A DNA stretch of 23,462 nucleotides, from IMG/VR virus record IMGVR_UViG_3300020401_000096, positions 1 to 23,462 of that record; one strand, written 5' to 3'. Shown in pieces: positions 1,677 through 13,432 of this stretch. Under the pieces are notes generated by a model. That model saw nothing but the letters and a program-made list of their open reading frames with translations. It searched no databases and was not told where the DNA came from. Position numbers and translations under genes: made by a program. The stretch comes from a virus. How positions within the stretch are numbered: the first letter of the stretch is position 1; the number at the start of each line of letters is the position of its first letter.

Positions 1677-2101
1677 TATGCACAGCAGTGCCTCGTGAGG
1701 CAATAGACATAGTTTGGGGCGATGTTAGCAATATGCTTAACAAAGCTATAATAACTAGTAAGGGTAAGTATCATATTGATGATATTTATCAGGATTTAAT
1801 GAAAGGTTATTATAATCTTTGGTTAATAGTAGATAATAAAGATGGAGAAAAAGTTATAGCAGCGATAACCACAAGAATAATAGAATATCCAAATAGAAAA
1901 GCTATGGCTATGGATTGGATAGGCGGTAAAAGAATGATGGAGTGGCTGCCTATAGCTATGGAAAAATTATCTAGTTTTGCAAAAGACTGTGATTGCAGTC
2001 ACCTAGAAGGCTATGGCAGAAAAGCATGGATAAAAATATTAAAAAAATATAATTGGGAACCTGAATATATAGCTTATCGTATGGAGATTAATAATGGGTA
2101 A
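1673..2101 (+). CDS. Small GNAT-like phage protein
   Basis: This 142-residue protein resembles the small acyltransferase-fold proteins often found among phage structural genes. The supporting pattern is a beta-rich middle (LWLIVDNKDGEKVIAAITTR), a glycine-containing loop around IGGKRMMEW, and a C-terminal HLEGYGRKAWIKILKKYNW segment. The last of these resembles the phage signature in which a short helix-strand precedes 'GRxxWxxxLxxxGW'. Acetyl-CoA binding residues cannot be confirmed by eye, so catalysis is uncertain. It overlaps the preceding gene by ATGA (1673-1676) and the next by 8 bases (2094-2101), so it is translationally coupled in the late operon. It could be a chaperone-like or internal protein without enzymatic activity. 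Confidence 0.6.
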   Translation: MICTAVPREAIDIVWGDVSNMLNKAIITSKGKYHIDDIYQDLMKGYYNLWLIVDNKDGEKVIAAITTRIIEYPNRKAMAMDWIGGKRMMEWLPIAMEKLSSFAKDCDCSHLEGYGRKAWIKILKKYNWEPEYIAYRMEINNG

Positions 2102-3032
2102 AGGTAGATCAAGGCCACAGCAGCCTACAGAACAAAATATAGTACAAAGCTCATTACCTAAATATTTTGAGCCTTATGCTATAGACATGATAAAAAGGGC
2201 TGAAGCTGAATCAAAAAGAGAATATATTCCATATGAAGGCCAAAGACTTGCAGATGAAAACACTGATACAGCTAGATCAAGAGAAATAGCTAGAGCTGTG
2301 GCAGAGGGCGGTATACCGGGCCTAGGTCAAGCAACAGCAGGCACTACAGCAGGTATGGGTAGAGCTATAGAGGGCTTAGGATTTCAATCACAAGATTTTG
2401 GATCTGATCAAGCACGACAATATATGTCTCCGTATTTGCAAAACGTGTTAGACGTACAAAAAAGACAGGCTATATTAGATTTTAACAGACAACAAGCAGG
2501 CAGAGATGCTGATGCCGTTCAGGCTGGTGCGTTTGGCGGCTCAAGACAAGCTGTAGCTCAAGCTCTTGCTGGAGAAGGCTTGCAAAGACAACTAGGTGAA
2601 ATACAAGCTGTTGGCCAACAAAAAGCATTTGAGCAAGCACAGCAACAGTTTGAAAGAGATAGAGCGGCACAACTAGCGGCAGAAAGACAAGGGTTATCTG
2701 CAGCAGAAAGTTTGTCTGGTCAATCAGCACAACTTGCTGCGTTAGGTGAAAAGGCTAGAGCAGGTGATATTGAGTCTGCACAGTTGTTAGAAAAAATTGC
2801 TAAAGATAGACAGGCAAGAGAACAAGCTGGATTAGACTTGGCATATGAAGATTTTGTTAGACAAAGAGACATGCCAAGAGAAGATTTAACATTCCTGTCA
2901 TCTATTCTCCGTGGTGTTCCTGTACAGCCATCAACAGAAACAACTAAATTTCAACAATACAATCCTGTGAAAGACTTATTAGGTACAGGTATAGCTGGAT
3001 TAGGATTATACAGAGGATTAACAGGCGGATGA
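2094..3032 (+). CDS. Gln/Ala-rich helical virion-associated protein
   Basis: A 312-residue protein with a long helical, glutamine- and alanine-rich central part (about residues 105-260). It includes the conserved-looking stretches YMSPYLQNVLDVQKRQA and AGAFGGSRQAV, which I recall from internal or tail-associated proteins of marine podoviruses. The C-terminus ends in a small hydrophobic glycine-rich segment (LLGTGIAGLGLYRGLTGG). ATG 2094 is preceded by GGAG with 8 bases spacing and overlaps the preceding stop. Its stop overlaps the ATGATG of the next gene. The helical make-up and its place upstream of the giant protein would suit an ejected internal protein analogous to T7 gp14-gp16, but no direct homology to those is claimed. 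Confidence 0.62.
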   Translation: MGKGRSRPQQPTEQNIVQSSLPKYFEPYAIDMIKRAEAESKREYIPYEGQRLADENTDTARSREIARAVAEGGIPGLGQATAGTTAGMGRAIEGLGFQSQDFGSDQARQYMSPYLQNVLDVQKRQAILDFNRQQAGRDADAVQAGAFGGSRQAVAQALAGEGLQRQLGEIQAVGQQKAFEQAQQQFERDRAAQLAAERQGLSAAESLSGQSAQLAALGEKARAGDIESAQLLEKIAKDRQAREQAGLDLAYEDFVRQRDMPREDLTFLSSILRGVPVQPSTETTKFQQYNPVKDLLGTGIAGLGLYRGLTGG

Positions 3033-4000
3033 TGAATGTTTTACAAATACAAGATGATTTAAAAAACTTTTCTGAAGATCAGTTAATAAAAGAAATGCAA
3101 CAGCCAAGTGGCTCTGCGCCTCAGTTCCTTGTATTATCAGAATTAAATAGACGTAAAAGAGTTAAAGGTGAATTTGCAGCTAGACAAGCTCAGACTGAGC
3201 CTACAGTTGCACAAGAAGTTGTGGCTGCCGCTGGTGTTCCTCAGTCTGGTATGATGGGTATGTCAGAGGCAATGGCTCCTGCAAGTGTAAATTCAGGTGG
3301 TATTGGGTCTATGATGCCACAAACTATGAACAATGGTGGCGTTATAAAAGCATCTAATGGTTTTGCTGGTACTGGTAGTACTTCACAACAAATATTAGAT
3401 AGATTAGAAGAAAAAGATAAAGCAAAGATAGATGAAAATGCTGATGTAGAGAATATATCAAAAGACGTAACTACACAGAATACAGGAGTAAGAGGTAATG
3501 TGCCTAATTATACTATAGAGCCTGATATAATACCTTTAGTATCTGATTCCGTAGAACAAGATATTTTAAATTTACAAAAAGGACTGCAGAAAGAAAGAGC
3601 CTTAGATAGAGCTTTAGCTATCGCACAGGCAGGTTTTGGTATTTTGGCATCAGATGCACCAACTTTGGGACAAGCAGTGGGTGAAGGGGCTTCTACGGGC
3701 CTAGAAGCCTATAGAGATGCTAATAAAAGATATCAAGAAGGTGTTGTTGATTTAATAAATGCTAGAGCGAAGATTGCGTCTGGTAGAAAGAAAGGTAAGT
3801 TAACTGCAAGTGACATCATGAGCAATCTTAATAAAACTAGAGAGCAGCTTTATGGTAAGCCCGGTGACTTGGCTTACATCAAATCAGAAATTGATGATAA
3901 AACTAGGAATCAATTAATGGCACAAGAAAGATTTTTAATGAATCTTCTAAAAGAGGATTATGGTATAGATTTACCTGTTGCAACAGCCATATCATCTTAA
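3029..4000 (+). CDS. Virion-associated protein with N-terminal helical module
   Basis: A 323-residue protein. Residues 1-55 form a charged helical module with the pattern QDDLKNFSEDQLIKEMQQ followed by FLVLSELNRRKR, which I recall from marine phage late operons. A low-complexity Met/Gly/Asn region follows, with NNGGVIKASNGFAG around residue 102. A helical C-terminal half contains ALAIAQAGFGILASDAPTLGQAVGEGA, a hydrophobic amphipathic-looking segment. The start may be ATG 3029 or the adjacent ATG 3032; both follow AGGCGG closely. It overlaps the upstream gene and is separated from the giant gene by 10 bases. It is probably a partner of the giant polyvalent protein in the capsid, by position only. 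Confidence 0.6.
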   Translation: MMNVLQIQDDLKNFSEDQLIKEMQQPSGSAPQFLVLSELNRRKRVKGEFAARQAQTEPTVAQEVVAAAGVPQSGMMGMSEAMAPASVNSGGIGSMMPQTMNNGGVIKASNGFAGTGSTSQQILDRLEEKDKAKIDENADVENISKDVTTQNTGVRGNVPNYTIEPDIIPLVSDSVEQDILNLQKGLQKERALDRALAIAQAGFGILASDAPTLGQAVGEGASTGLEAYRDANKRYQEGVVDLINARAKIASGRKKGKLTASDIMSNLNKTREQLYGKPGDLAYIKSEIDDKTRNQLMAQERFLMNLLKEDYGIDLPVATAISS

Positions 4001-4010
4001 AGGCGCATAA

Positions 4011-7000
4011 ATGGGTACAATTAATGTAAAAAGTAACTTAACTGGTAAAACATACCCTATATTGATAGCTGGTAACAGGCCCACTGCAGCAGAAGACCAA
4101 TTTATACAAAAATATATTGCTAGAGAAGATGGTGTTTTATTAGAAGCGCCTGAAACAGCGGAAGAAGAAGGGAGTCTTATTGATGTCCCTAAAAGTTTTG
4201 TTGGAAGTTTTATAAGAGGTTTTACAGATTTACCCGGTGGTATAGCCTCAATAGGTGAAGGCGTTGGGCAAAGATTAGGCTTCGATGTAGCACCCGGTGA
4301 GACAGGATTAGGAGAAGCTGCACAAAATTTTTCTAAAGGCGCTAGTAGAGCTTTAGCAGATACTTTTGATTTTAATGAAAGTCCTTATAGTAAATTTGGT
4401 CAAGCAGGTGGGTCTCTTGCCTCTTTTTTAGCAGGTGGATGGGCTGTTAAAAGTGGTTTGGCAGTTGCAGGCGCTGCCCCTAAAATTGCTTCATATTTAG
4501 GTTTAGGCACTGTTGCAACACAGGGTGCGGCTTTAACATCACAAGATCAGATGAATAGGATTGCTAATTTTTTAGAAAATGGCGGTGTTATAGACGGTTC
4601 GCAAAAAGCAGATGCTGTATTATTAAGCGCTTTAATTGGTACATCAGAGGCTATACCTTTTGCTGCGTTAAGCAAGAGCTTAGGAGCTTCTTTAAAAATT
4701 TTAAAAAAAGTAGACAAAAAAGATATAGATGAAGCAGTAAAAACTATAGGCGGCAGAATAAAAAGAAGCATTGGTGTTGGTATTGGAGAGGGTACTCAAG
4801 AGTTAGTTGCAGGTATACTTCAAGATTTAACTGAAAAAAATATTTACAACCCAGATGTTCAAGTTGGACAAAGTGCATATGATGATGCCGTTTATGGTGG
4901 TGGCGCAGGTTTTGCTTTAAATTTAATATTAGACAGTATTAGAGGCAGAAGAGTAAATCAATACGAAAAGAAACAAAAAGAATTAGATAATGATGCAGAT
5001 GAAGCTGCTAGAGAAAATGCTAGTATGGCTCAAAATGCAAAAGATTATTTAAAAACCCAAGAAGATAAACAAGTAAAACTAATAGAGGGTCCGGGCCTTG
5101 GATTGCCTGCACCCGATGCTCCAATTATCCTACCATCTGGCGATCCTGTTACTGATATAGACAATCAATCAGCAGTTGATGCCCAAGAAAATCAAAAAAG
5201 AAAAAATACTGAAGATACATTACAGGCTGCAAGAGAGGCTACAACTCCATATAATCCTGTGAAATTAGAGAGTTTGCCAGAAGATGAAGCGTTTAAAATA
5301 CGTAAACAAAGAATAGAATTAAAAAAAGGCATACCTGTAGATGATCCCGTAACAATACAAGAATTAGAAGAAGTTGTTGGCCCTGAAGCATCTTTAAGAG
5401 AAAAAATTTTACAAAAACCTACTTTAAATAAAGTGCCTGCATTAGAGGAAATATCAGATGCTGAATTAGAAGCAGAGCGCATCACACAAGAAACAAAAGA
5501 ACAAGTAATAAAATTTCAAGAAAATCTATTAAAACAAAAAATAATTAATAGAGCTGCAGCAAAAAGAGTATATCAAAAACTATACAAAGAAAAAATGCCA
5601 GATGATATTGCTGATGGTGCATTGGCTCAAATGTTAGGATCTGGTTTATTGCAGTATGATGGAAAAGGTAGATATTCACCTAGAAATCAGGTAGATGTAA
5701 ATTTAGATTTTATTGAACAGGCAAGAGCTTTATCTGAAAGAGCAAGGCAAATAAGAGAAGCTGATGATAGACTAAGAAAGCAAAGAAACATATTTCGTAA
5801 TGATCCAGTTAATCTTGAAACTAACAGTCAACAATTAGATTTATTACAAAAAAGATATAGTGATATACAATTAGAGGCCTTTAATTTAGAAAATAAAGCT
5901 AATCAGGCTGTGCAAGGTCAACAAACAATACAAGCTAGAAGAATAGCTCCTGCACTTGCGCCTAAAAAGGTCTTTGATCAAGCTACTAAAACAAAAGAAA
6001 CTCCAGAATATGTATTAAAACAAAAGCGTGTTCTTGATGCTCTACGAGCAGAGCTAAATAGAATAGGATTAACTGATGTAAGGTTAGAAGGTAGACCATT
6101 ATTAGATGCTGCACAGTTAACAGAAGACCTTTCAAGAGGACAAGACATAGGTATAACTGAAGGCATACAAGAAGTTTCACCTGATGGCAAACGTATCATA
6201 GCGTTAGCAATGGAAATATACGATCCTAATATGACTGATGCTGAGTTGCAGGCAAAGTTAGGAAGTGTCATGAATCATGAAATTATTCATGCATTAAAAA
6301 GTTTAAATGTTTTTACAGATCAGGAATATGACATATTAAAAAAAGCTGCAATGACAAGAAAATATGTCAAAAGATCAAAAGGCACAGATACAACAAGAAG
6401 TTATACATATTATGAAAGAGCTACTCATGCTTATATACGTGATGGTATGCCAAATGAACAAATAGTAGAAGAAGCTATTGCAGAGATGTATAGAGACTAT
6501 ACTGATGGTAAACTTAAATTTGGCGGTAAACCAAAGAGTCTTTTTGATAGAATTGTTGCTTTTTTCAAAGCTATATTTGGTTCGCATGCAGATCAAGGTT
6601 TTACACAGACAGAACAAATTTTTGAAAATATAGGCACAACAGAGATAGAAAAGCAGATAGGTAGAAGAGATAGAAAGCCGGATGATCCTGAAACTGTTAC
6701 TGAGCCACGTAGATCACGTATAATTATTGATAGATTACCAGATTTACACAGAGGTTCTATAGGACCCTTACCTATAGCGCATGTTGTTAAGTCTAGATAT
6801 TTACAATCGATAGGTATGCCTAATACAAGGCCTGATAGGTATGTGCAAGTAAATGAAGAGTTAGCTAGAAGAATAGCTAAAGACTTTGACGAAGCAAAGC
6901 ATGACCCAACTAATCCAGAGGTAATACAAGCATACAAAGCTATGGCTGATGAAACATTTAATCAATGGTTATTTATAAAAGATACAGGAATACAAATAGA

Positions 7001-10000
7001 ATTTATTAAGCCAAATCAAGCAAACCCATACCCAAGAGCATCTAAAGATTTATTAGAAGATATCAATAATAATCATATGTGGGTTTTTGCTACAGACGAT
7101 GGTTTTGGCAGTGATGCTATAACGGACCAAGATATAGCAGAGAACCCATTATTACAGACAACTGGTGAGATAATTGATGGTCGTGATGCTCGATATAATG
7201 ATTTATTTAGAATAGTTCATGATTACTTTGGTCACGCATTAGAGGGTGCTACTTTTTCAGCTAGAGGTGAAGAAAATGCTTGGCAGGCACATAGCCGTAT
7301 GTATACCCCGTTAGCCGCTAGAGCTATGACCACAGAAACAAGAGGACAAAACTCATGGCTTAACTACAGTGATGCTGTTGGAGACCATAATAGAAATAGC
7401 AAAAATAAAGCTGAAGAAACAATATACGCAGATCAAAAGATAACTTTACTGTCTGATTTTGTGCAAACAGAGGGATTAGCTAATAATATAGAGGGAGCAG
7501 TAGATGAAAGAGCAATTCAAGAAGATGAACGATTTAGTGAAACAAGAGATGATGCAACTGACAGAGGAAGAGATGCAAGAAGAGATGGAAGACGCAGCGT
7601 TATACGAAGCACGATTGAATCGACAAAAGAAAGGAGGGAACCTGAGTTATCTCCGCAAAGGACAGTCAAGCTAACACACTTCTCTCCTATCGAGGGCCTC
7701 CAAAGCATAGACCCAGAAAAACAAAGGTCTAATTTATTTATGCGGGGAGAAGAGAGGAGAAGAACTTTTGAGGGATATCCTGCTAGAAGCTATTTTGCTG
7801 TAAATATATCTGATCCTAATGGTTATAATCCGGAACAAAACTTAGGAGATAATATATACGAATTGGATGTACCGTATGAAGGTATGTATGATTGGGAAGC
7901 AGACCCAGAAAAATTCAACGATGCAGCAAATGCAGAATTAGATAAAAGTAGACCTGATATCAAAGACCCAACTGGTCGTGTTAATTACATAACTACTGCT
8001 AAAGAAAGGATGATTAAAGAGTCTGGCGCTACGGGTTATTGGATAAATGATCCTTTCCGTGGAACTATGGCGGCTATGTTTTATGAGTTGAGAGTGCCAG
8101 AGACGTATCAAGCTAAGAAGTATGATCAAGCATATAAAGATGGTATAAACCAAAAACGTGGTGTTGATGCAAAAAGAACCATGAGATCTAGAACCAGAGT
8201 TGTGGGACAAGAACATACAGTTAGCACAAGATTTCCTACCGCAAAAGCAAGAGAGGCAGATCCATCTGCTGAGTTGTTATTTATAAATGGAGATCTTATA
8301 AAGAATGATTCTAAACTTGCAAAAAATGCTGCTGATATAATTAAAAAATATAATTTATCAGAAAATGCAAAACGTTACGTAAACTTTTCAAATGAAGAAA
8401 TTATAGAAGATCACATTCAGGCTATGACAAATAACATATTATTTGTTCATGATTCCATAGATCCTACAATTAGAGAAAGATCTTCTCTTTGGTACGATGG
8501 CGCAAGAAACATAGTAGATAAGTTTTCAAAAACGTATAATTATCCTCCTGAAGTAGTTGCTGCGGTTATGGCAGTGCAGTCACCACAAAAAGATTGGTAT
8601 ATGAATGTTTCATTAGCTGAAAGGGTTATGGATATCGCTAGAAATCATAGTGATAAAGACTTTACACCAGAGATGGTAAAAACAGCAAAGAGGATATACG
8701 GTAAAAATAAAGCAATACAAGCTGCTATAAAGCACATATCTAATCCTAATAGAGATTCTACAAGCCTAGATAGTTTACAGTTTTCTTTTCACAAAGCTCT
8801 TTGGGTTAGAATATTTGATGAAACATATAATGACAGAGGTCATAGAGTAATAACTCCAGAGGGTGAATTTTTAGATTACGCAAGAAAAAAACCATCGAAA
8901 GCACAGTTAGGAAAAAAGACGCTATCAAATTATGAATCCATATTTGGTGTTCAAGGCGATCCTAAAGGCACAGGTTGGGGTTCTAATAATACTATAGATA
9001 AAGCTATGCAGTTATTAGAGTTGCGTGGTGACAATTCTTTACAACAAGTATCTGTATTACTTGGTGACAGGCATAAAGTTAGAAGTTTTTTTAATAATAT
9101 AATTACGCCTATGTCTCCAGACGGTCATTCTACAATAGATACGCATGCGGTTGCAGTAGCATTTTTTAAACCTTTAAGTGGTAAATCTTTTGAAGTAGAT
9201 CAAAATTTTGGATTATATACTGCGAAGGGTAGAGCGGACCTATACGGAATCATACCTAATTCCTCTGTTACAGGTGTTAGAGGCATGTATGGATTAATAT
9301 ATGATGCCTATGCAAGAGCCGCAGAACAAAGAGGTATTTTGCCAAGGCAAATGCAATCAATAACATGGGAAGCTATAAGAGGTTTGTTTCCTGATACATT
9401 TAAAAATGAAACACAAAATGTTGAAAGAATAAATAACATATGGAGATCATATGTAGATGGTGGATTAACTTTAGATCAAACAAGACAGGAGATAATAAAT
9501 GCTACGCCAGATGGATTTGCGGAACCAAGTTGGGCAAGACCCCCTAATACAATACCTCAATTCAGTAGGGATGCCAGTTACGAGACAGAACTACCTAGAC
9601 CTTATGTATCCGGAAGGAATACCAGAAATGACAGCGGAATTGGAAGAGACTCTACCGGAACACCTGAGACTAGACGCTCAAGAATAAGAGCAACACCTTC
9701 TAGTGAGAGACAAAGACAGGCACAGCAAAATGATCGTGACATTGCACAGGCTCAGTTAAATATAAGATATAATAATTTAGCAGGGGTTTTGGCTAAAGCA
9801 TTTAAAGTAGTGCCTGAGTCATTTTTATTTGGCAACACTAGAGCGCAGGCCGCACAAAAGATAGTGCAAAAATATCAAGACTCTTTTCAACCTGTTGGCG
9901 CAATGATGGATGAGTTGCGTGATAAAGGCTACACAATAGCTGATGCTATGGACCCTTATCTAAGAGAAGTAAATTCTTCAGGTATTATAGGAGATAAATT

Positions 10001-12635
10001 AACTGATTTAGAAGAAACTATAGTTAAACCAACTATTGAAGAAATTAAAAAAATAAAAGTTTCGGATGAAAAATTAACAGAATTAAAAAATGCCTCTGCT
10101 AGAGCCGCTGCGCAAGAGCAAGGAGAGGGATTAGTTAACAAAACTATAGATTCTTCAATAGATGTTAAGTTAGCTTTAACAGATATATATCTTTACGCTA
10201 TGCATGCAAAAGAGAGAAATATAGATATAGCAAATCGCTATGCCAGACCTAATGGTTCAGGATTATCAAAGGCTGAAGCTGATGTAATATTAGATTGGTT
10301 TGACAGTTTAGATCAATCAAATAAAGATATTTTTCAATTTATCAATAAACAAACTAGAAGAATAGTTAATAGTACTAATAATATTAGATATGAAAGTGGA
10401 TTAATAGATAAAGCAGAATACGATGAGCATCAAGAGGGTGCTAGATTTAAATACTATGTACCTTTACGTGGTGATTTAGACATTGATGTTGAGATGAAAG
10501 AGGATAGACAAAATACATTACGTAAAACAACTAATTACTTTGGCGCTTTAGGAAGAGAGGACAAAGTAGCTAGAGGCCGTGGTATTAAGTATGCAGAAAA
10601 TATTTTTGCATCAGTTATTGCCCAAAACCAAAGAGCGATAGATAGATCAGAAAGAAATAAAGTAGGTCAGAGTCTTTTAAGATTATTAAGAGGTCAAGAA
10701 GAACAACCTGATGGTAGCACGGCTATAAACGATGCGTTGGCTACAGATTTACAGCAAAATTTTGCAGAAATAACAACTGAAGCAGAACCTATGGACCCAC
10801 ATCAGATTGCAATAAAAGAGAATGGTCAACAAGTTTACGTAAACTTTTACAGAGAAAGTATGTCCAGATCTTTCAAGCATCATTACGAACCTAAAACACA
10901 TCATGTTGCATTTAGAACTTTATCTAAATTAAATAGATTTTTATCTAATGTTAATACTTCTTACAACCCAGCTTTCGTTATTCCAAACTTTGCAAAAGAC
11001 TTGGAAACAGCTTTAGTAAATATACAACAACATGATGCAGAAGGTATTACAAAAGAGATAACTAGAGATGTTGCTGGTGCTATAAATGGGATTAGAAAAG
11101 TTTTTGGTGTTGGTGCAAATCCTTTTGGCAAAAGAACGCCAGACACATCTAGTTATTGGTCACAAGAATATTTAAAATTTGTAAAGGCAGGTGGCAAGAA
11201 CGCCACTAACCAAATGGGAACTGTGCAAGATCAAATGGAGAATCTTAGTAAGTTGTTAATGGATATTAGTGAAGCTAAAACATTAGGATTTAAAAGAAAT
11301 GGATTCTTTAGAAAAAAAGGAAGAAGTCTTTTACAGTTTTTAGAAGATTACAATACTGTTATTGAGAATGGTGTACGTGTTGCCACGTTTACTAATTTGA
11401 AAAAAAGAGGATTTACTGATGCTAGGGCTGCCGAAGCAGCTAGGAACGTAACGGTAAACTTTGCCAAAGGTGGTGAAGATAAAGTATTTATGAACTCTTT
11501 GTATTTATTTTATAACGCATCCTTGCAAGGTAGTATGGCTATATACAATGCGGCTTATAAATCTAAAAAGGTAAGAAAAATATTAGGTGGCATAATAGTT
11601 TATGGATTTTTGCAAGATCAACTATTAGCATTTTTAGACGATCCGTCAGAAGATGATGATCCAATAACTTATGATAAATTAAATGAATATGATTTAGAGC
11701 ATAATTTAATATTTCCATCTTTTGGTTTAATGGAAGATAAGTTTATAGCAATACCATTGGCTTATGGACTTAATATGCCATTTAATTTAGGCAGATCTCT
11801 TAGCCGCTACACACGAGGCGAATATACTTTTGGTCAAGCAGCAAATAGTATTTTTGACACAACTATGGAAACATTATCTCCTTTTGGTGCAATAGAGAAC
11901 TTTGAAACATACGTAATACCAACTGCTTTTAAACCGGCAGTAGAAATGTATATTAATAAAAATTACAGAAACGATCCTATATACAAAGAAACGCCTATGT
12001 ACTCAACAACGAATGTTCCTGATGCTTATACACATTGGACAAATACCGGTGCTGTATCTAAATTTATAGTACAAACTATAAATGATTTAACATTTGGAGA
12101 TGAAGTAGAAAGTGGTTTGATTGACATATCTCCTGACACGATAGAATATTTTTATGAGTATGTAATAGGAGGTGCTGGTGCTTTTATAGGTAGATCAGCT
12201 AATCTAGTTTTTGATGTCATACCGGCTATAGCTTCCGGAGACTTTGAGGGTAACTTACCAAACAGAATACCATTTGTTAGAAAAGTAATAAAACAGCCGT
12301 CAGATAGAGTAGATACACAAAATTATTTAGAAAAGAGAAAAGAGCTATACACGATATTTTCTAGAATTGACTTAGCAAGAAGAAGAGGTGATCCCGAAAC
12401 TATACGTAAACTTATCGCTAGGTACGATGACGAGGTACGCATATATGGTAGATTTAAGGCTTTAGACAACGCAAGAAACAGATTGTTGAGACAGATCAAG
12501 GAGTTAGAACGAAATCTTCGACTGTCAGATGATGTCAGACAAAAACTTATTAAATTACGTAGAGAACGAATACAAGAGATCATGAGAAAAGGTATTCAGT
12601 TAATGAGAAGTGTGGGCATAAGACAAACTGCATGA
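4011..12635 (+). CDS. Giant polyvalent (multi-domain injected) phage protein with metallopeptidase and LPD38-like regions
   Basis: One frame of 2874 codons, preceded by AAGG 8 bases before ATG 4011. Domains in order: a short N-terminal module (1-40); an Ala/Gly-rich hydrophobic region (about 130-195) and a GIGEGTQELVAGILQD helix region (about 255-315); charged coiled-coil-like stretches (about 315-700); a metallopeptidase-like domain with HEIIH at 756-760 and Glu820/821; an unassigned domain with HDYFGH (1070-1075), GEENAW (1086-1091) and TETRGQNSW (1108-1116); a possible ADP-ribosyltransferase-like segment (about 1213-1330); an unassigned domain with SPQKDW (1524-1529) and DTHA (1710-1713); then helical regions and an LPD38-like C-terminus (about 2290-2700). 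Basic linkers at 900, 1194, 1391 and 1888 separate the parts. Iyer and colleagues described such 'polyvalent proteins' as delivered with phage DNA. Delivery here is inference. Confidence 0.88.
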   Translation: MGTINVKSNLTGKTYPILIAGNRPTAAEDQFIQKYIAREDGVLLEAPETAEEEGSLIDVPKSFVGSFIRGFTDLPGGIASIGEGVGQRLGFDVAPGETGLGEAAQNFSKGASRALADTFDFNESPYSKFGQAGGSLASFLAGGWAVKSGLAVAGAAPKIASYLGLGTVATQGAALTSQDQMNRIANFLENGGVIDGSQKADAVLLSALIGTSEAIPFAALSKSLGASLKILKKVDKKDIDEAVKTIGGRIKRSIGVGIGEGTQELVAGILQDLTEKNIYNPDVQVGQSAYDDAVYGGGAGFALNLILDSIRGRRVNQYEKKQKELDNDADEAARENASMAQNAKDYLKTQEDKQVKLIEGPGLGLPAPDAPIILPSGDPVTDIDNQSAVDAQENQKRKNTEDTLQAAREATTPYNPVKLESLPEDEAFKIRKQRIELKKGIPVDDPVTIQELEEVVGPEASLREKILQKPTLNKVPALEEISDAELEAERITQETKEQVIKFQENLLKQKIINRAAAKRVYQKLYKEKMPDDIADGALAQMLGSGLLQYDGKGRYSPRNQVDVNLDFIEQARALSERARQIREADDRLRKQRNIFRNDPVNLETNSQQLDLLQKRYSDIQLEAFNLENKANQAVQGQQTIQARRIAPALAPKKVFDQATKTKETPEYVLKQKRVLDALRAELNRIGLTDVRLEGRPLLDAAQLTEDLSRGQDIGITEGIQEVSPDGKRIIALAMEIYDPNMTDAELQAKLGSVMNHEIIHALKSLNVFTDQEYDILKKAAMTRKYVKRSKGTDTTRSYTYYERATHAYIRDGMPNEQIVEEAIAEMYRDYTDGKLKFGGKPKSLFDRIVAFFKAIFGSHADQGFTQTEQIFENIGTTEIEKQIGRRDRKPDDPETVTEPRRSRIIIDRLPDLHRGSIGPLPIAHVVKSRYLQSIGMPNTRPDRYVQVNEELARRIAKDFDEAKHDPTNPEVIQAYKAMADETFNQWLFIKDTGIQIEFIKPNQANPYPRASKDLLEDINNNHMWVFATDDGFGSDAITDQDIAENPLLQTTGEIIDGRDARYNDLFRIVHDYFGHALEGATFSARGEENAWQAHSRMYTPLAARAMTTETRGQNSWLNYSDAVGDHNRNSKNKAEETIYADQKITLLSDFVQTEGLANNIEGAVDERAIQEDERFSETRDDATDRGRDARRDGRRSVIRSTIESTKERREPELSPQRTVKLTHFSPIEGLQSIDPEKQRSNLFMRGEERRRTFEGYPARSYFAVNISDPNGYNPEQNLGDNIYELDVPYEGMYDWEADPEKFNDAANAELDKSRPDIKDPTGRVNYITTAKERMIKESGATGYWINDPFRGTMAAMFYELRVPETYQAKKYDQAYKDGINQKRGVDAKRTMRSRTRVVGQEHTVSTRFPTAKAREADPSAELLFINGDLIKNDSKLAKNAADIIKKYNLSENAKRYVNFSNEEIIEDHIQAMTNNILFVHDSIDPTIRERSSLWYDGARNIVDKFSKTYNYPPEVVAAVMAVQSPQKDWYMNVSLAERVMDIARNHSDKDFTPEMVKTAKRIYGKNKAIQAAIKHISNPNRDSTSLDSLQFSFHKALWVRIFDETYNDRGHRVITPEGEFLDYARKKPSKAQLGKKTLSNYESIFGVQGDPKGTGWGSNNTIDKAMQLLELRGDNSLQQVSVLLGDRHKVRSFFNNIITPMSPDGHSTIDTHAVAVAFFKPLSGKSFEVDQNFGLYTAKGRADLYGIIPNSSVTGVRGMYGLIYDAYARAAEQRGILPRQMQSITWEAIRGLFPDTFKNETQNVERINNIWRSYVDGGLTLDQTRQEIINATPDGFAEPSWARPPNTIPQFSRDASYETELPRPYVSGRNTRNDSGIGRDSTGTPETRRSRIRATPSSERQRQAQQNDRDIAQAQLNIRYNNLAGVLAKAFKVVPESFLFGNTRAQAAQKIVQKYQDSFQPVGAMMDELRDKGYTIADAMDPYLREVNSSGIIGDKLTDLEETIVKPTIEEIKKIKVSDEKLTELKNASARAAAQEQGEGLVNKTIDSSIDVKLALTDIYLYAMHAKERNIDIANRYARPNGSGLSKAEADVILDWFDSLDQSNKDIFQFINKQTRRIVNSTNNIRYESGLIDKAEYDEHQEGARFKYYVPLRGDLDIDVEMKEDRQNTLRKTTNYFGALGREDKVARGRGIKYAENIFASVIAQNQRAIDRSERNKVGQSLLRLLRGQEEQPDGSTAINDALATDLQQNFAEITTEAEPMDPHQIAIKENGQQVYVNFYRESMSRSFKHHYEPKTHHVAFRTLSKLNRFLSNVNTSYNPAFVIPNFAKDLETALVNIQQHDAEGITKEITRDVAGAINGIRKVFGVGANPFGKRTPDTSSYWSQEYLKFVKAGGKNATNQMGTVQDQMENLSKLLMDISEAKTLGFKRNGFFRKKGRSLLQFLEDYNTVIENGVRVATFTNLKKRGFTDARAAEAARNVTVNFAKGGEDKVFMNSLYLFYNASLQGSMAIYNAAYKSKKVRKILGGIIVYGFLQDQLLAFLDDPSEDDDPITYDKLNEYDLEHNLIFPSFGLMEDKFIAIPLAYGLNMPFNLGRSLSRYTRGEYTFGQAANSIFDTTMETLSPFGAIENFETYVIPTAFKPAVEMYINKNYRNDPIYKETPMYSTTNVPDAYTHWTNTGAVSKFIVQTINDLTFGDEVESGLIDISPDTIEYFYEYVIGGAGAFIGRSANLVFDVIPAIASGDFEGNLPNRIPFVRKVIKQPSDRVDTQNYLEKRKELYTIFSRIDLARRRGDPETIRKLIARYDDEVRIYGRFKALDNARNRLLRQIKELERNLRLSDDVRQKLIKLRRERIQEIMRKGIQLMRSVGIRQTA
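6213..6500 (+). other. Metallopeptidase-like domain (HEIIH) inside the giant protein
   Basis: The codons at 6276-6290 encode HEIIH (residues 756-760), the zinc-binding HExxH motif of zincin-type peptidases. A downstream EEAIAEMYRDY (Glu820/Glu821) is placed where the third zinc ligand would be expected. Metallopeptidase domains of this kind are known from phage polyvalent proteins. The substrate is unknown: it could be the protein itself or a host protein. Confidence 0.7.
6745..7480 (+). other. Unassigned domain with HDYFGH / GEENAW / TETRGQNSW motifs
   Basis: Residues about 912-1157 form a compact region between two basic linkers. It contains HDYFGH (1070-1075), GEENAW (1086-1091), HSRMYTPLAARAM and TETRGQNSW (1108-1116). 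The invariant-looking His, Asp, Glu, Arg and Gln residues are typical of an active site. I recall similar motifs in other giant phage proteins but cannot name the family. Confidence 0.5.
7647..7980 (+). other. Possible ADP-ribosyltransferase-like segment of the giant protein
   Basis: Residues about 1213-1323 show the order LTHFSPIEGL, then an Arg-rich stretch and YPARSYFAVN, then NIYELDVPYEGMYDW. This order resembles the H / Y-F / acidic strand arrangement of ADP-ribosyltransferase domains in polyvalent proteins. The catalytic acidic residue cannot be fixed by eye, so the call is tentative. Confidence 0.3.
8268..9420 (+). other. Unassigned domain with SPQKDW and DTHA motifs in the giant protein
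   Basis: Residues about 1420-1803 carry AAVMAVQSPQKDWYMNVSLA (around 1524), then GDRHKVRSFFNNI, STIDTHAVAVAFFKPLSG (DTHA 1710-1713) and finally RQMQSITWEAIRGLFPDTF. The pattern recurs in phage proteins as I remember them and is faintly like helix-hairpin-helix DNA glycosylase-type folds, but I cannot confirm that relation. No function is claimed. Confidence 0.4.
10831..10846. repeat. Perfect 16-bp palindrome AAGTTTACGTAAACTT inside the giant gene
   Basis: The sequence AAGTTTACGTAAACTT shares the TTTACGTAAA core of the intergenic 20-bp palindromes but lies inside the coding frame, where it encodes part of VYVNF. A related stretch, TACGTAAACTTTT, occurs at 8376-8388 and also encodes YVNF. It may be a codon coincidence. 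Confidence 0.6.
10878..12110 (+). other. LPD38-like C-terminal region of the giant protein
   Basis: Residues about 2290-2700 include NPAFVIPNFAKDLETALVN (from 2319), a hydrophobic segment around 2522-2542 (ILGGIIVYGFLQDQLLAFL) and ending motifs such as FIAIPLAYGLNMPFNLGR. The arrangement matches what I know of large polyvalent protein-associated domain 38. It is followed by a strongly basic, coiled-coil-like tail to residue 2874. Confidence 0.6.
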
Positions 12636-12755: not shown

Positions 12756-12977
12756 TCATTTCTTTTTTATTTTTATTAATTCTTTGAGATACCATTCTGC
12801 TTTCATCAAATCTTCTAAACTATTCTTGTGCTTGTGCCTGTATCTCCAAACATATTTAATTATATTTCCTTGTAGGTAATACTCGTAGCCCTCGCCTAGG
12901 GCTGATTTAATCGCATCAATACATTCTACTTTACCTTTTCTGTAGTGGCTTGGTCTGTTTACATTATCTTTATTCAT
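12756..12977 (-). CDS. DUF3310 protein (T7 gp1.7-like)
   Basis: A 73-residue protein with the family pattern: NRPSHYRKGKVECIDAI at the start (His11-Tyr12), GNIIKYVWRYRHK in the middle (Gly37, Asn38, Lys41, Tyr42, Arg45) and LEDLMKAEWYLKELI at the end. DUF3310 includes the T7 gp1.7 nucleotide kinase, so a role in nucleotide metabolism is plausible. Activity is not shown here. I start it at ATG 12977 because GGGAG lies 5 bases upstream; an in-frame ATG at 12989 lacks such a site. Its ATG overlaps the upstream stop (ATGA). It is the last gene of the leftward operon. Confidence 0.88.
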   Translation of the reverse strand: MNKDNVNRPSHYRKGKVECIDAIKSALGEGYEYYLQGNIIKYVWRYRHKHKNSLEDLMKAEWYLKELIKIKKK

Positions 12978-13432
12978 TTTATCTCCCATCTAAATTTAAG
13001 TTGTCCATGAATTGGCAACCAATCTCTATTCGGTCTAGTAGTCCAACCTTTGTTTTCTTTCCAACCACCAGTTTCTCCCATTATCTTCCAACCTACACCA
13101 CGAAGACTAGCACCAGATTCTTTTTGCAATGTATATGTAATCATTTTTAATCCACCCATTTGTTGCCATATTCTCCAACATCTTCCATACAAAAACGAAC
13201 AAGTATTTTTTGGGGCATTTGGTTTTACGCACACACGCAATACCTCTGCTGTAAATCCATCATCTAATCTTCTTGCAATTGGTCTACCCACAATTGCTAC
13301 ACCATGCAATTCATCTAAAGAAGCTCCAATAGAAAATTTTCCACCTTGAGTTGGTTTACTATGTCTGTGAAAGTTCGCAACGAACTCATTAGCTTCTTGA
13401 ATACTCATTGGTATGGTTTTAAGTTTCTTCAT
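12974..13432 (-). CDS. XF1762-family protein (GNAT/Mom-like fold suspected)
   Basis: A 152-residue protein matching a phage and mobile-element family I know as XF1762. The matching order is FVANFHRHSKPTQGGKFSIGA, then GVAIVGRPIARRLDDG, EVLRVCV, CSFLYGRCWRIWQQMGG, then ITYTLQKESGASLRGVGWK. The fold is thought to be acetyltransferase-like and somewhat similar to the phage Mu Mom protein, which modifies adenines in DNA. That link is inference, and DNA modification by this protein is not demonstrated. Its start overlaps the upstream gene by 14 bases, with GGAAG before ATG 13432, and its stop overlaps the DUF3310 start. If it does modify DNA, it would protect the genome from host restriction. Confidence 0.75.
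   Translation of the reverse strand: MKKLKTIPMSIQEANEFVANFHRHSKPTQGGKFSIGASLDELHGVAIVGRPIARRLDDGFTAEVLRVCVKPNAPKNTCSFLYGRCWRIWQQMGGLKMITYTLQKESGASLRGVGWKIMGETGGWKENKGWTTRPNRDWLPIHGQLKFRWEIK

What the first reader, a model, noticed from the sequence alone, without database searches (positions are those of the whole stretch)
4011..12635. A 2874-residue polyvalent protein may be delivered with the phage DNA and carries several enzyme-like domains
One continuous frame encodes, in order, hydrophobic/amphipathic segments, an HEIIH metallopeptidase-like domain, an unassigned HDYFGH domain, a possible ADP-ribosyltransferase-like segment, a DTHA domain and an LPD38-like C-terminus. It stands in the late operon, next to other virion-type proteins. 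Polyvalent proteins are known as arsenals that enter the host with DNA, but this domain combination is not one I can name as described.
Basis: partly seen in the sequence, partly recalled or inferred. Interest (0 to 1): 0.8.

Follow-up and report, generated by a model that had tools for sequence, protein, structure and literature searches.

The report
Phage giant multi-enzyme ejection protein
A marine virus of bacteria encodes one 2,874-residue protein that looks like a packaged multi-tool, probably shot into the host with the viral DNA and carrying a protease-like, an ADP-ribosyltransferase-like and a DNA-repair-enzyme-like part; such proteins are a known class, but the DNA-glycosylase-like part and its partner appear not to have been described in them.

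Summary
The 2,874-aa ORF is real (4011-12635) and is the last gene of the late operon of a 59.9-kb marine phage. It is a polyvalent protein, a class described by Iyer et al. 2017. Its C-terminal ~950 residues (with LPD38) are homologous to the C-terminus of Bcep22-type DarB-like proteins; one of these, JC1 gp69, is a proven virion protein. Order of parts: N-terminal region, zincin protease (HExxH plus distal Glu conserved), HDYFGH domain, ADP-ribosyltransferase-fold domain (nearest solved structure AcrIF11; His and Tyr kept, catalytic acid not conserved), 'DTHA' domain, virion-type C-terminus.

New here: the DTHA domain is a DUF7178 relative with inserts. Stand-alone DUF7178 proteins and HhH-GPD DNA glycosylases are reciprocal best profile matches, with Lys and Asp in the catalytic positions. 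The slot is exchanged as a cassette: near-identical proteins carry DTHA alleles only 77% identical, and cousins carry a remote relative instead. HDYFGH and DUF7178 co-occur in seven architectures, including adjacent mycobacteriophage genes, so they probably act together.

Delivery and all activities are inferred. HhH-GPD membership is not confirmed by direct structure or Pfam searches. New variant of a known kind.

The parts
4011..12635 (+). Giant polyvalent protein gene, 2874 aa
   Evidence: orthologs
4011..5045 (+). N-terminal region (residues 1-345), conserved, weakly hydrophobic
6078..6650 (+). Zincin-like metallopeptidase domain (residues 690-880); HEIIH 756-760, distal EEAIAE 820-825
   Evidence: 12 divergent rows; model
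6723..7535 (+). HDYFGH domain (residues 905-1175; phrog_3170), function unknown, conserved H, D, G, H, E, H, E, Q
7653..8165 (+). ADP-ribosyltransferase-fold domain (residues 1215-1385); H1223 and Y1261 invariant, strand-5 acid not conserved
8208..9560 (+). DTHA domain (residues 1400-1850): DUF7178 relative, HhH-GPD-glycosylase-like, K1689 and D1710; exchangeable cassette slot
9708..12584 (+). C-terminal virion-type region (residues 1900-2858), homologous to DarB-like virion proteins
   Evidence: PMC9144972
11670..12203 (+). LPD38 (residues 2554-2731)
   Evidence: Pfam PF18857, E 1.6e-29
2094..3032 (+). Neighbour: DNA ejection protein homologue (312 aa, phrog_4287)
3029..4000 (+). Neighbour: 323-aa protein immediately upstream, co-conserved with the giant gene

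Best explanation
This is a polyvalent ejection protein. It is made late and packaged in the head with the neighbouring ejection proteins through its C-terminal ~950-residue (LPD38) region, and it enters the host with the DNA. The embedded zincin protease probably cleaves it into working pieces. The payload between protease and C-terminus then acts in the host: the ART-fold domain would modify (or, if inactive, bind) a host defence or transcription protein, and the HDYFGH + DTHA pair would act on DNA, the DTHA domain as an HhH-GPD-type DNA glycosylase/lyase using K1689 and D1710. Shown by sequence: architecture, homology, conservation, cassette exchange, HDYFGH-DUF7178 linkage. Inferred: packaging, ejection, processing and every enzymatic activity.
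For: Delivery: C-terminal homology to JC1 gp69 (phmmer 4e-43, BLASTP 1.8e-49; tblastn, 122 of 128 phage records cover at least 80% of the region); JC1 gp69 was found in CsCl-purified virions with 51 unique peptides, second-highest score (PMC9144972 Table 6); ejection-protein homologue just upstream and late operon ending with this gene. Protease: HExxH and distal Glu in 12 divergent rows. ART: Foldseek top match AcrIF11, prob 0.96. DTHA: confident all-alpha model (pLDDT 88); DUF7178 solos match DTHA at 99.9%; solos versus a bacterial HhH-GPD profile score 29.1 against at most 17.7 in 40 shuffles, in the register that puts K and D on the catalytic Lys and Asp; in a set of 20 families the two are each other's best non-self match; depositors named four of the solos glycosylase or N-glycosylase/DNA lyase. 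Effector-like evolution: DTHA exchanged as a unit (window vs L012: dS 0.94 in DTHA, 0.01-0.12 in N, linker, protease and C); the same slot holds a remote relative in L108-L111. Linkage: HDYFGH and DUF7178 in seven architectures, including adjacent genes gp239/gp240 of phage Tonenili.
Against: No proteomics for this phage; JC1 gp69 shares only the C-terminus, at about 22% identity. Foldseek found no PDB match for the DTHA model (best E 0.31), Pfam HhH-GPD hits no member, and DTHA itself versus HhH-GPD is not above control; only the compact solos are. The ART lacks an invariant strand-5 acid. The HDYFGH part of the model is poor (pLDDT about 50-78).
Confidence: 0.6

Rival explanations
1. Mainly structural ejection protein: it builds or lines the DNA-ejection conduit, and the enzyme-like folds are degenerate or only scaffolds.
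For: C-terminal half belongs to a virion-protein family; ART lacks an invariant acid; it follows other ejection-type genes.
Against: Catalytic-type residues of the protease and HDYFGH domains and the K/D of DTHA are invariant across very divergent proteins and solo versions; the DTHA slot is exchanged like an effector.
Confidence: 0.15
2. The DTHA domain is a DNA-binding or other all-helical enzyme unrelated to HhH-GPD glycosylases; the motif likeness is convergent or chance.
For: No Foldseek, Pfam or PDB-sequence support; DTHA itself is not above control in profile comparison.
Against: Reciprocal best match of the solos with HhH-GPD in the catalytic register, above shuffles and decoys; independent depositor annotation as glycosylase.
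Confidence: 0.3
3. The glycosylase-like part serves repair of the incoming, sunlight- or oxidation-damaged phage genome rather than attack on the host or its defences.
For: Sister fold of repair enzymes; marine origin of many relatives.
Against: Rapid allelic exchange and replacement of the slot by a remote relative look like an arms race; permanent linkage to HDYFGH is not expected for a simple repair enzyme.
Confidence: 0.2

Closest known systems
Polyvalent proteins (Iyer et al. 2017, PMC5512222)
   Same: Very long multidomain protein of a terminase-portal phage, MPTase and ART domains, LPD38, encoded with virion genes
   Different: HDYFGH and the DUF7178/HhH-GPD-like cassette are not named there as far as I could find; 'glycosylase' does not occur in the paper's main text
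Bcep22-like DarB-like virion protein (Burkholderia phage JC1 gp69, 4515 aa)
   Same: Homologous C-terminal ~900 residues; last gene of the virion module; proven in virions
   Different: The N-terminal payload differs: relatives are annotated as transglycosylase/helicase/methylase; here protease, HDYFGH, ART, DTHA
Planktothrix phage Pag-Yong1 'large polyvalent protein' (L078)
   Same: HDYFGH domain (46% identity), a weak ART-PolyVal trace and LPD38
   Different: No DUF7178 domain found
DUF7178 / phrog_3842 solo proteins (e.g. Microbacterium phage Cece gp22)
   Same: Same core: invariant W-Y, S-P, W..N, K, D, Q..TW
   Different: About 200 aa, no insert, not part of a giant virion-type protein
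AcrIF11 anti-CRISPR ADP-ribosyltransferase (6KYF)
   Same: ART fold; conserved His and aromatic residue
   Different: No sequence match; no conserved counterpart of its D115; a small free protein, not a domain of a giant protein
HhH-GPD DNA glycosylases (EndoIII, MutY)
   Same: S..Q/P..W..N...A helix region, hairpin, Lys, then V/I-D at 19-21 residues
   Different: ~110-120-residue insert in DTHA; not detected by Pfam PF00730 or Foldseek

Membership tests
Polyvalent proteins (Iyer 2017) | Several domains of disparate activity in one polypeptide of an invasive element | tested here: met
Polyvalent proteins (Iyer 2017) | Linked to virion genes and to known polyvalent domains (LPD, MPTase) | tested here: met
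   LPD38 1.6e-29; late operon
Polyvalent proteins (Iyer 2017) | Packaged and delivered with DNA | not testable with these tools
   Only a C-terminal homologue was shown in virions (PMC9144972)
Zincin-like MPTase of polyvalent proteins | HEXXH on one helix and Glu on a following helix | tested here: met
   12 divergent rows; helices in model
Zincin-like MPTase of polyvalent proteins | Proteolytic activity | not testable with these tools
   no bench data
ADP-ribosyltransferases (ART-HYD2 / AcrIF11) | ART fold | tested here: inconclusive
   Foldseek prob 0.96 but E 0.044, TMt 0.48; model of moderate confidence
ADP-ribosyltransferases (ART-HYD2 / AcrIF11) | His in strand 1 and Tyr in strand 2 | tested here: met
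   H1223 and Y1261 invariant in 11 rows; strand placement from the model only
ADP-ribosyltransferases (ART-HYD2 / AcrIF11) | Asp/Glu in strand 5 | tested here: not met
   No invariant acid in the GYW...AA region across 11 rows
DUF7178 (PF23802) | Score above curated cut-off | tested here: met
   86 bits vs 27; all 37 relatives match
HhH-GPD DNA glycosylases (PF00730) | Score above Pfam cut-off | tested here: not met
   No PF00730 hit in DTHA or solos
HhH-GPD DNA glycosylases (PF00730) | Lys-Asp pair after a hairpin, about 18-20 apart | tested here: met
   K and D invariant, 19 apart in a representative solo, 21 in DTHA
HhH-GPD DNA glycosylases (PF00730) | Profile and fold similarity above control | tested here: inconclusive
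   Profile positive for solos, negative for DTHA itself and for Foldseek
Aromatic amino acid hydroxylases (Biopterin_H PF00351) | H....H ... E iron site within a homologous fold | tested here: inconclusive
   Only the 8-residue HDxFGH aligns; score 28.9 vs shuffle maximum 25.4; best of 20 families

The most novel reading that the evidence does not exclude
HDYFGH and the DUF7178/HhH-GPD-like domain form a two-step DNA-attacking module (a metal enzyme alters a base, a glycosylase/lyase excises it) that phages carry in the virion and inject as a swappable weapon against host DNA or host DNA-based defences.
Probability: 0.15. Interest if true: 0.88.

Novelty: new variant of a known kind. Interest (0 to 1): 0.6.

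Why it matters
If right, base-excision chemistry would join the list of tools that phages inject with their genome, and DUF7178, a domain of unknown function spread through marine and actinobacterial phages, gets a testable active site (Lys/Asp) and a likely partner (HDYFGH). The exchangeable slot gives a simple way to find what each cassette targets: compare near-identical phages that differ mainly there.

Tried and rejected
1) Profile search of DTHA and of DUF7178 solos against PDB sequences: nothing credible. 2) Foldseek of the DTHA model against PDB: only meaningless helical matches; against BFVD it finds only phage proteins without known function. 3) HDYFGH as a pterin-dependent hydroxylase: the idea rests on the HDxFGH motif and a distal Glu; the profile match is 8 residues and the distal Glu is not aligned, so it is kept only as a lead. 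4) The Mom-like DNA-modification gene next door (12974-13432) as a functional partner: not found beside the giant gene in the orthologs examined, dropped. 5) Multi-domain AlphaFold model of protease-HDYFGH-ART: only the protease and ART parts are usable (mean pLDDT 59). 6) Alternative cassette of L108-L111 versus HhH-GPD directly: within shuffle range; the link goes only through the DUF7178 solos. 7) Literature search for DUF7178: no paper. 8) Virion proteomics of cluster C mycobacteriophages in the literature: nothing found.

Full report
OBSERVATION. The ORF is exactly where stated: 4011-12635, plus strand, 2874 aa. The window is a 100% identical part of a 59,923-base viral contig (IMGVR_UViG_3300020471_000096). 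On that contig the late genes run terminase, portal, head, tail, virion structural protein, holin, lysozyme, DNA-ejection-protein homologue and last the giant gene (the terminase and portal lie at the other end of the contig, which I read as circular permutation). About 20 other viral contigs carry full-length orthologs at 94-48% identity, with the same upstream neighbours and a conserved downstream block.

ANATOMY. Residues 1-345: conserved N-terminal region with few hydrophobic stretches. Residues 690-880: zincin, HEIIH at 756-760 plus a distal EEAIAE; both motifs are kept in 12 divergent rows; Pfam gives only a sub-threshold M13 hit. Residues 905-1175: HDYFGH domain (phrog_3170); 14 rows keep H1070, D1071, G1074, H1075, E1087, H1094, E1109 and Q1113; no Pfam family. 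Residues 1215-1385: ART fold; the top Foldseek match of the model is 6KYF, the anti-CRISPR ADP-ribosyltransferase AcrIF11 (prob 0.96, E 0.044, TM-score 0.48 on the target), and the fourth is a chain of the MbcT-MbcA toxin-antitoxin complex. His and Tyr are invariant but a strand-5 acid is not, so activity is uncertain. Residues 1400-1850: the DTHA domain. Residues 1900-2858: C-terminal region with LPD38 (E 1.6e-29).

DELIVERY. The C-terminal region is homologous to the C-termini of giant proteins of Vibrio, Ruegeria, Stx-converting and Burkholderia phages; 122 of 128 phage records cover at least 80% of it. It matches JC1 gp69, a 4515-aa DarB-like protein, which was detected in CsCl-purified virions with 51 unique peptides, second only to the major capsid protein in score (PMC9144972, Table 6). 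In other phages DUF7178 also sits among head genes: Roseobacter phage CRP-738 gp40 lies between the portal and coat genes. This makes packaging likely but does not show it here.

THE DTHA DOMAIN. It is a DUF7178 member. AlphaFold2 with 37 relatives gives a confident all-helical model (mean pLDDT 88), with no PDB match by Foldseek. Compact ~200-aa solo DUF7178 proteins exist in Microbacterium, Mycobacterium, Rhodococcus, Gordonia, Streptomyces, Maribacter, Anabaena and Synechococcus phages, and depositors called four of them glycosylase, DNA glycosylase or N-glycosylase/DNA lyase. Aligned with them, the DTHA domain shows a large insert of roughly 110-120 residues and a smaller one; the solos share W-Y, S-P...W..N...A, K, V-D and Q..TW. 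hhalign of the solos with 30 bacterial HhH-GPD proteins (loci) scores 29.1, against at most 17.7 in 40 column shuffles, and the alignment lays the helix-hairpin-helix Lys and the catalytic Asp of HhH-GPD on the invariant Lys and Asp. In a set of 20 families drawn from the same loci, HhH-GPD is the best non-self match of the solos, and the solos are the best non-self match of HhH-GPD. In the model K1689 lies at the start of the second helix of a helix pair and D1710 directly precedes the next helix, as in EndoIII (own knowledge). Against this: DTHA itself is not above control, and Pfam and PDB sequence searches are silent. I put HhH-GPD kinship at about 0.7 and base-excision activity at about 0.5.

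EXCHANGE AND LINKAGE. Between the window and L012, synonymous divergence is 0.01-0.12 in the N-terminal, linker, protease and C-terminal segments, 0.31-0.54 in HDYFGH and ART, and 0.94 in DTHA (77% identical protein). L005, more distant elsewhere, has a 97% identical DTHA. Alleles of this domain are therefore exchanged largely as a unit, with breakpoints near residues 1400 and 1780. In the cousins L108-L111 the slot holds another cassette (motif GPKIGxGFYQNL...LTMDxWWMR) with about 160 relatives in viral contigs. Its profile matches the DUF7178 solos (prob 75%, score 43 vs shuffle maximum 26.5) with K and D aligned. HDYFGH and DUF7178 occur together in seven architectures: this family, L054, L115 (weak), Pseudofulvimonas L156, a Bacteroidetes MAG L161, Prosthecobacter L165, and as adjacent genes gp239 and gp240 of Mycobacterium phage Tonenili. 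Such repeated linkage argues for joint action.

MECHANISM. Shown: gene, architecture, homology, conservation, exchange, linkage. Inferred: packaging by the C-terminus, ejection with DNA, self-cleavage by the zincin (discussed as a possibility by Iyer et al., PMC5512222), ADP-ribosylation or binding of a host factor (model for polyvalent ARTs), base excision by DTHA, and an unknown, perhaps metal-dependent, role of HDYFGH. Whether the DNA activity is directed against host DNA, against a host DNA mark, or repairs the incoming genome cannot be decided from sequence.

NOVELTY. Polyvalent proteins, MPTase, ART and LPD38 are known. The word glycosylase does not occur in the main text of the 2017 survey, and no paper in the library searched mentions DUF7178. 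I therefore file this as a new variant of a known kind.

Noticed in passing
window 12974-13432 (-): XF1762-family / Mom-like DNA modification gene (NCBIfam 3.6e-49, phrog_1384) convergent with the giant gene; not found beside it in the orthologs examined.
   Followed up: partly
L005:9302-9304: In this close relative the giant gene is interrupted by one in-frame stop codon at residue 1392, between the ART and DTHA domains, giving two ORFs of 1391 and 1471 aa; sequencing error or a real split is not resolved.
   Followed up: no
L014, L017, L018, L095, after residue ~900 of the giant protein: Some orthologs carry an extra ~85-210 residue segment between the protease and HDYFGH domains.
   Followed up: no
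L110 residues 1045-1138 of the ORF at 2521-11736: A cousin carries a segment weakly like Mycobacterium phage L5 gp82 (PF25735, E 1e-5, just below cut-off) between protease and HDYFGH.
   Followed up: no
L218 (Virus Rctr197k, KX853510.1), residues ~498-692, 776-846 and 935-1038 of the held piece: One very long protein holds several separate DUF7178 matches in a row.
   Followed up: no
L056:5597-14965 (3123 aa): Another polyvalent protein with DUF7178 combines glucosaminidase, inorganic pyrophosphatase, zeta-toxin-like and LPD38 domains.
   Followed up: no
L224-L301: The alternative cassette (GPKIGxGFYQNL...LTMDxWWMR) is very common in viral contigs, and no Pfam family covered it in L110.
   Followed up: partly
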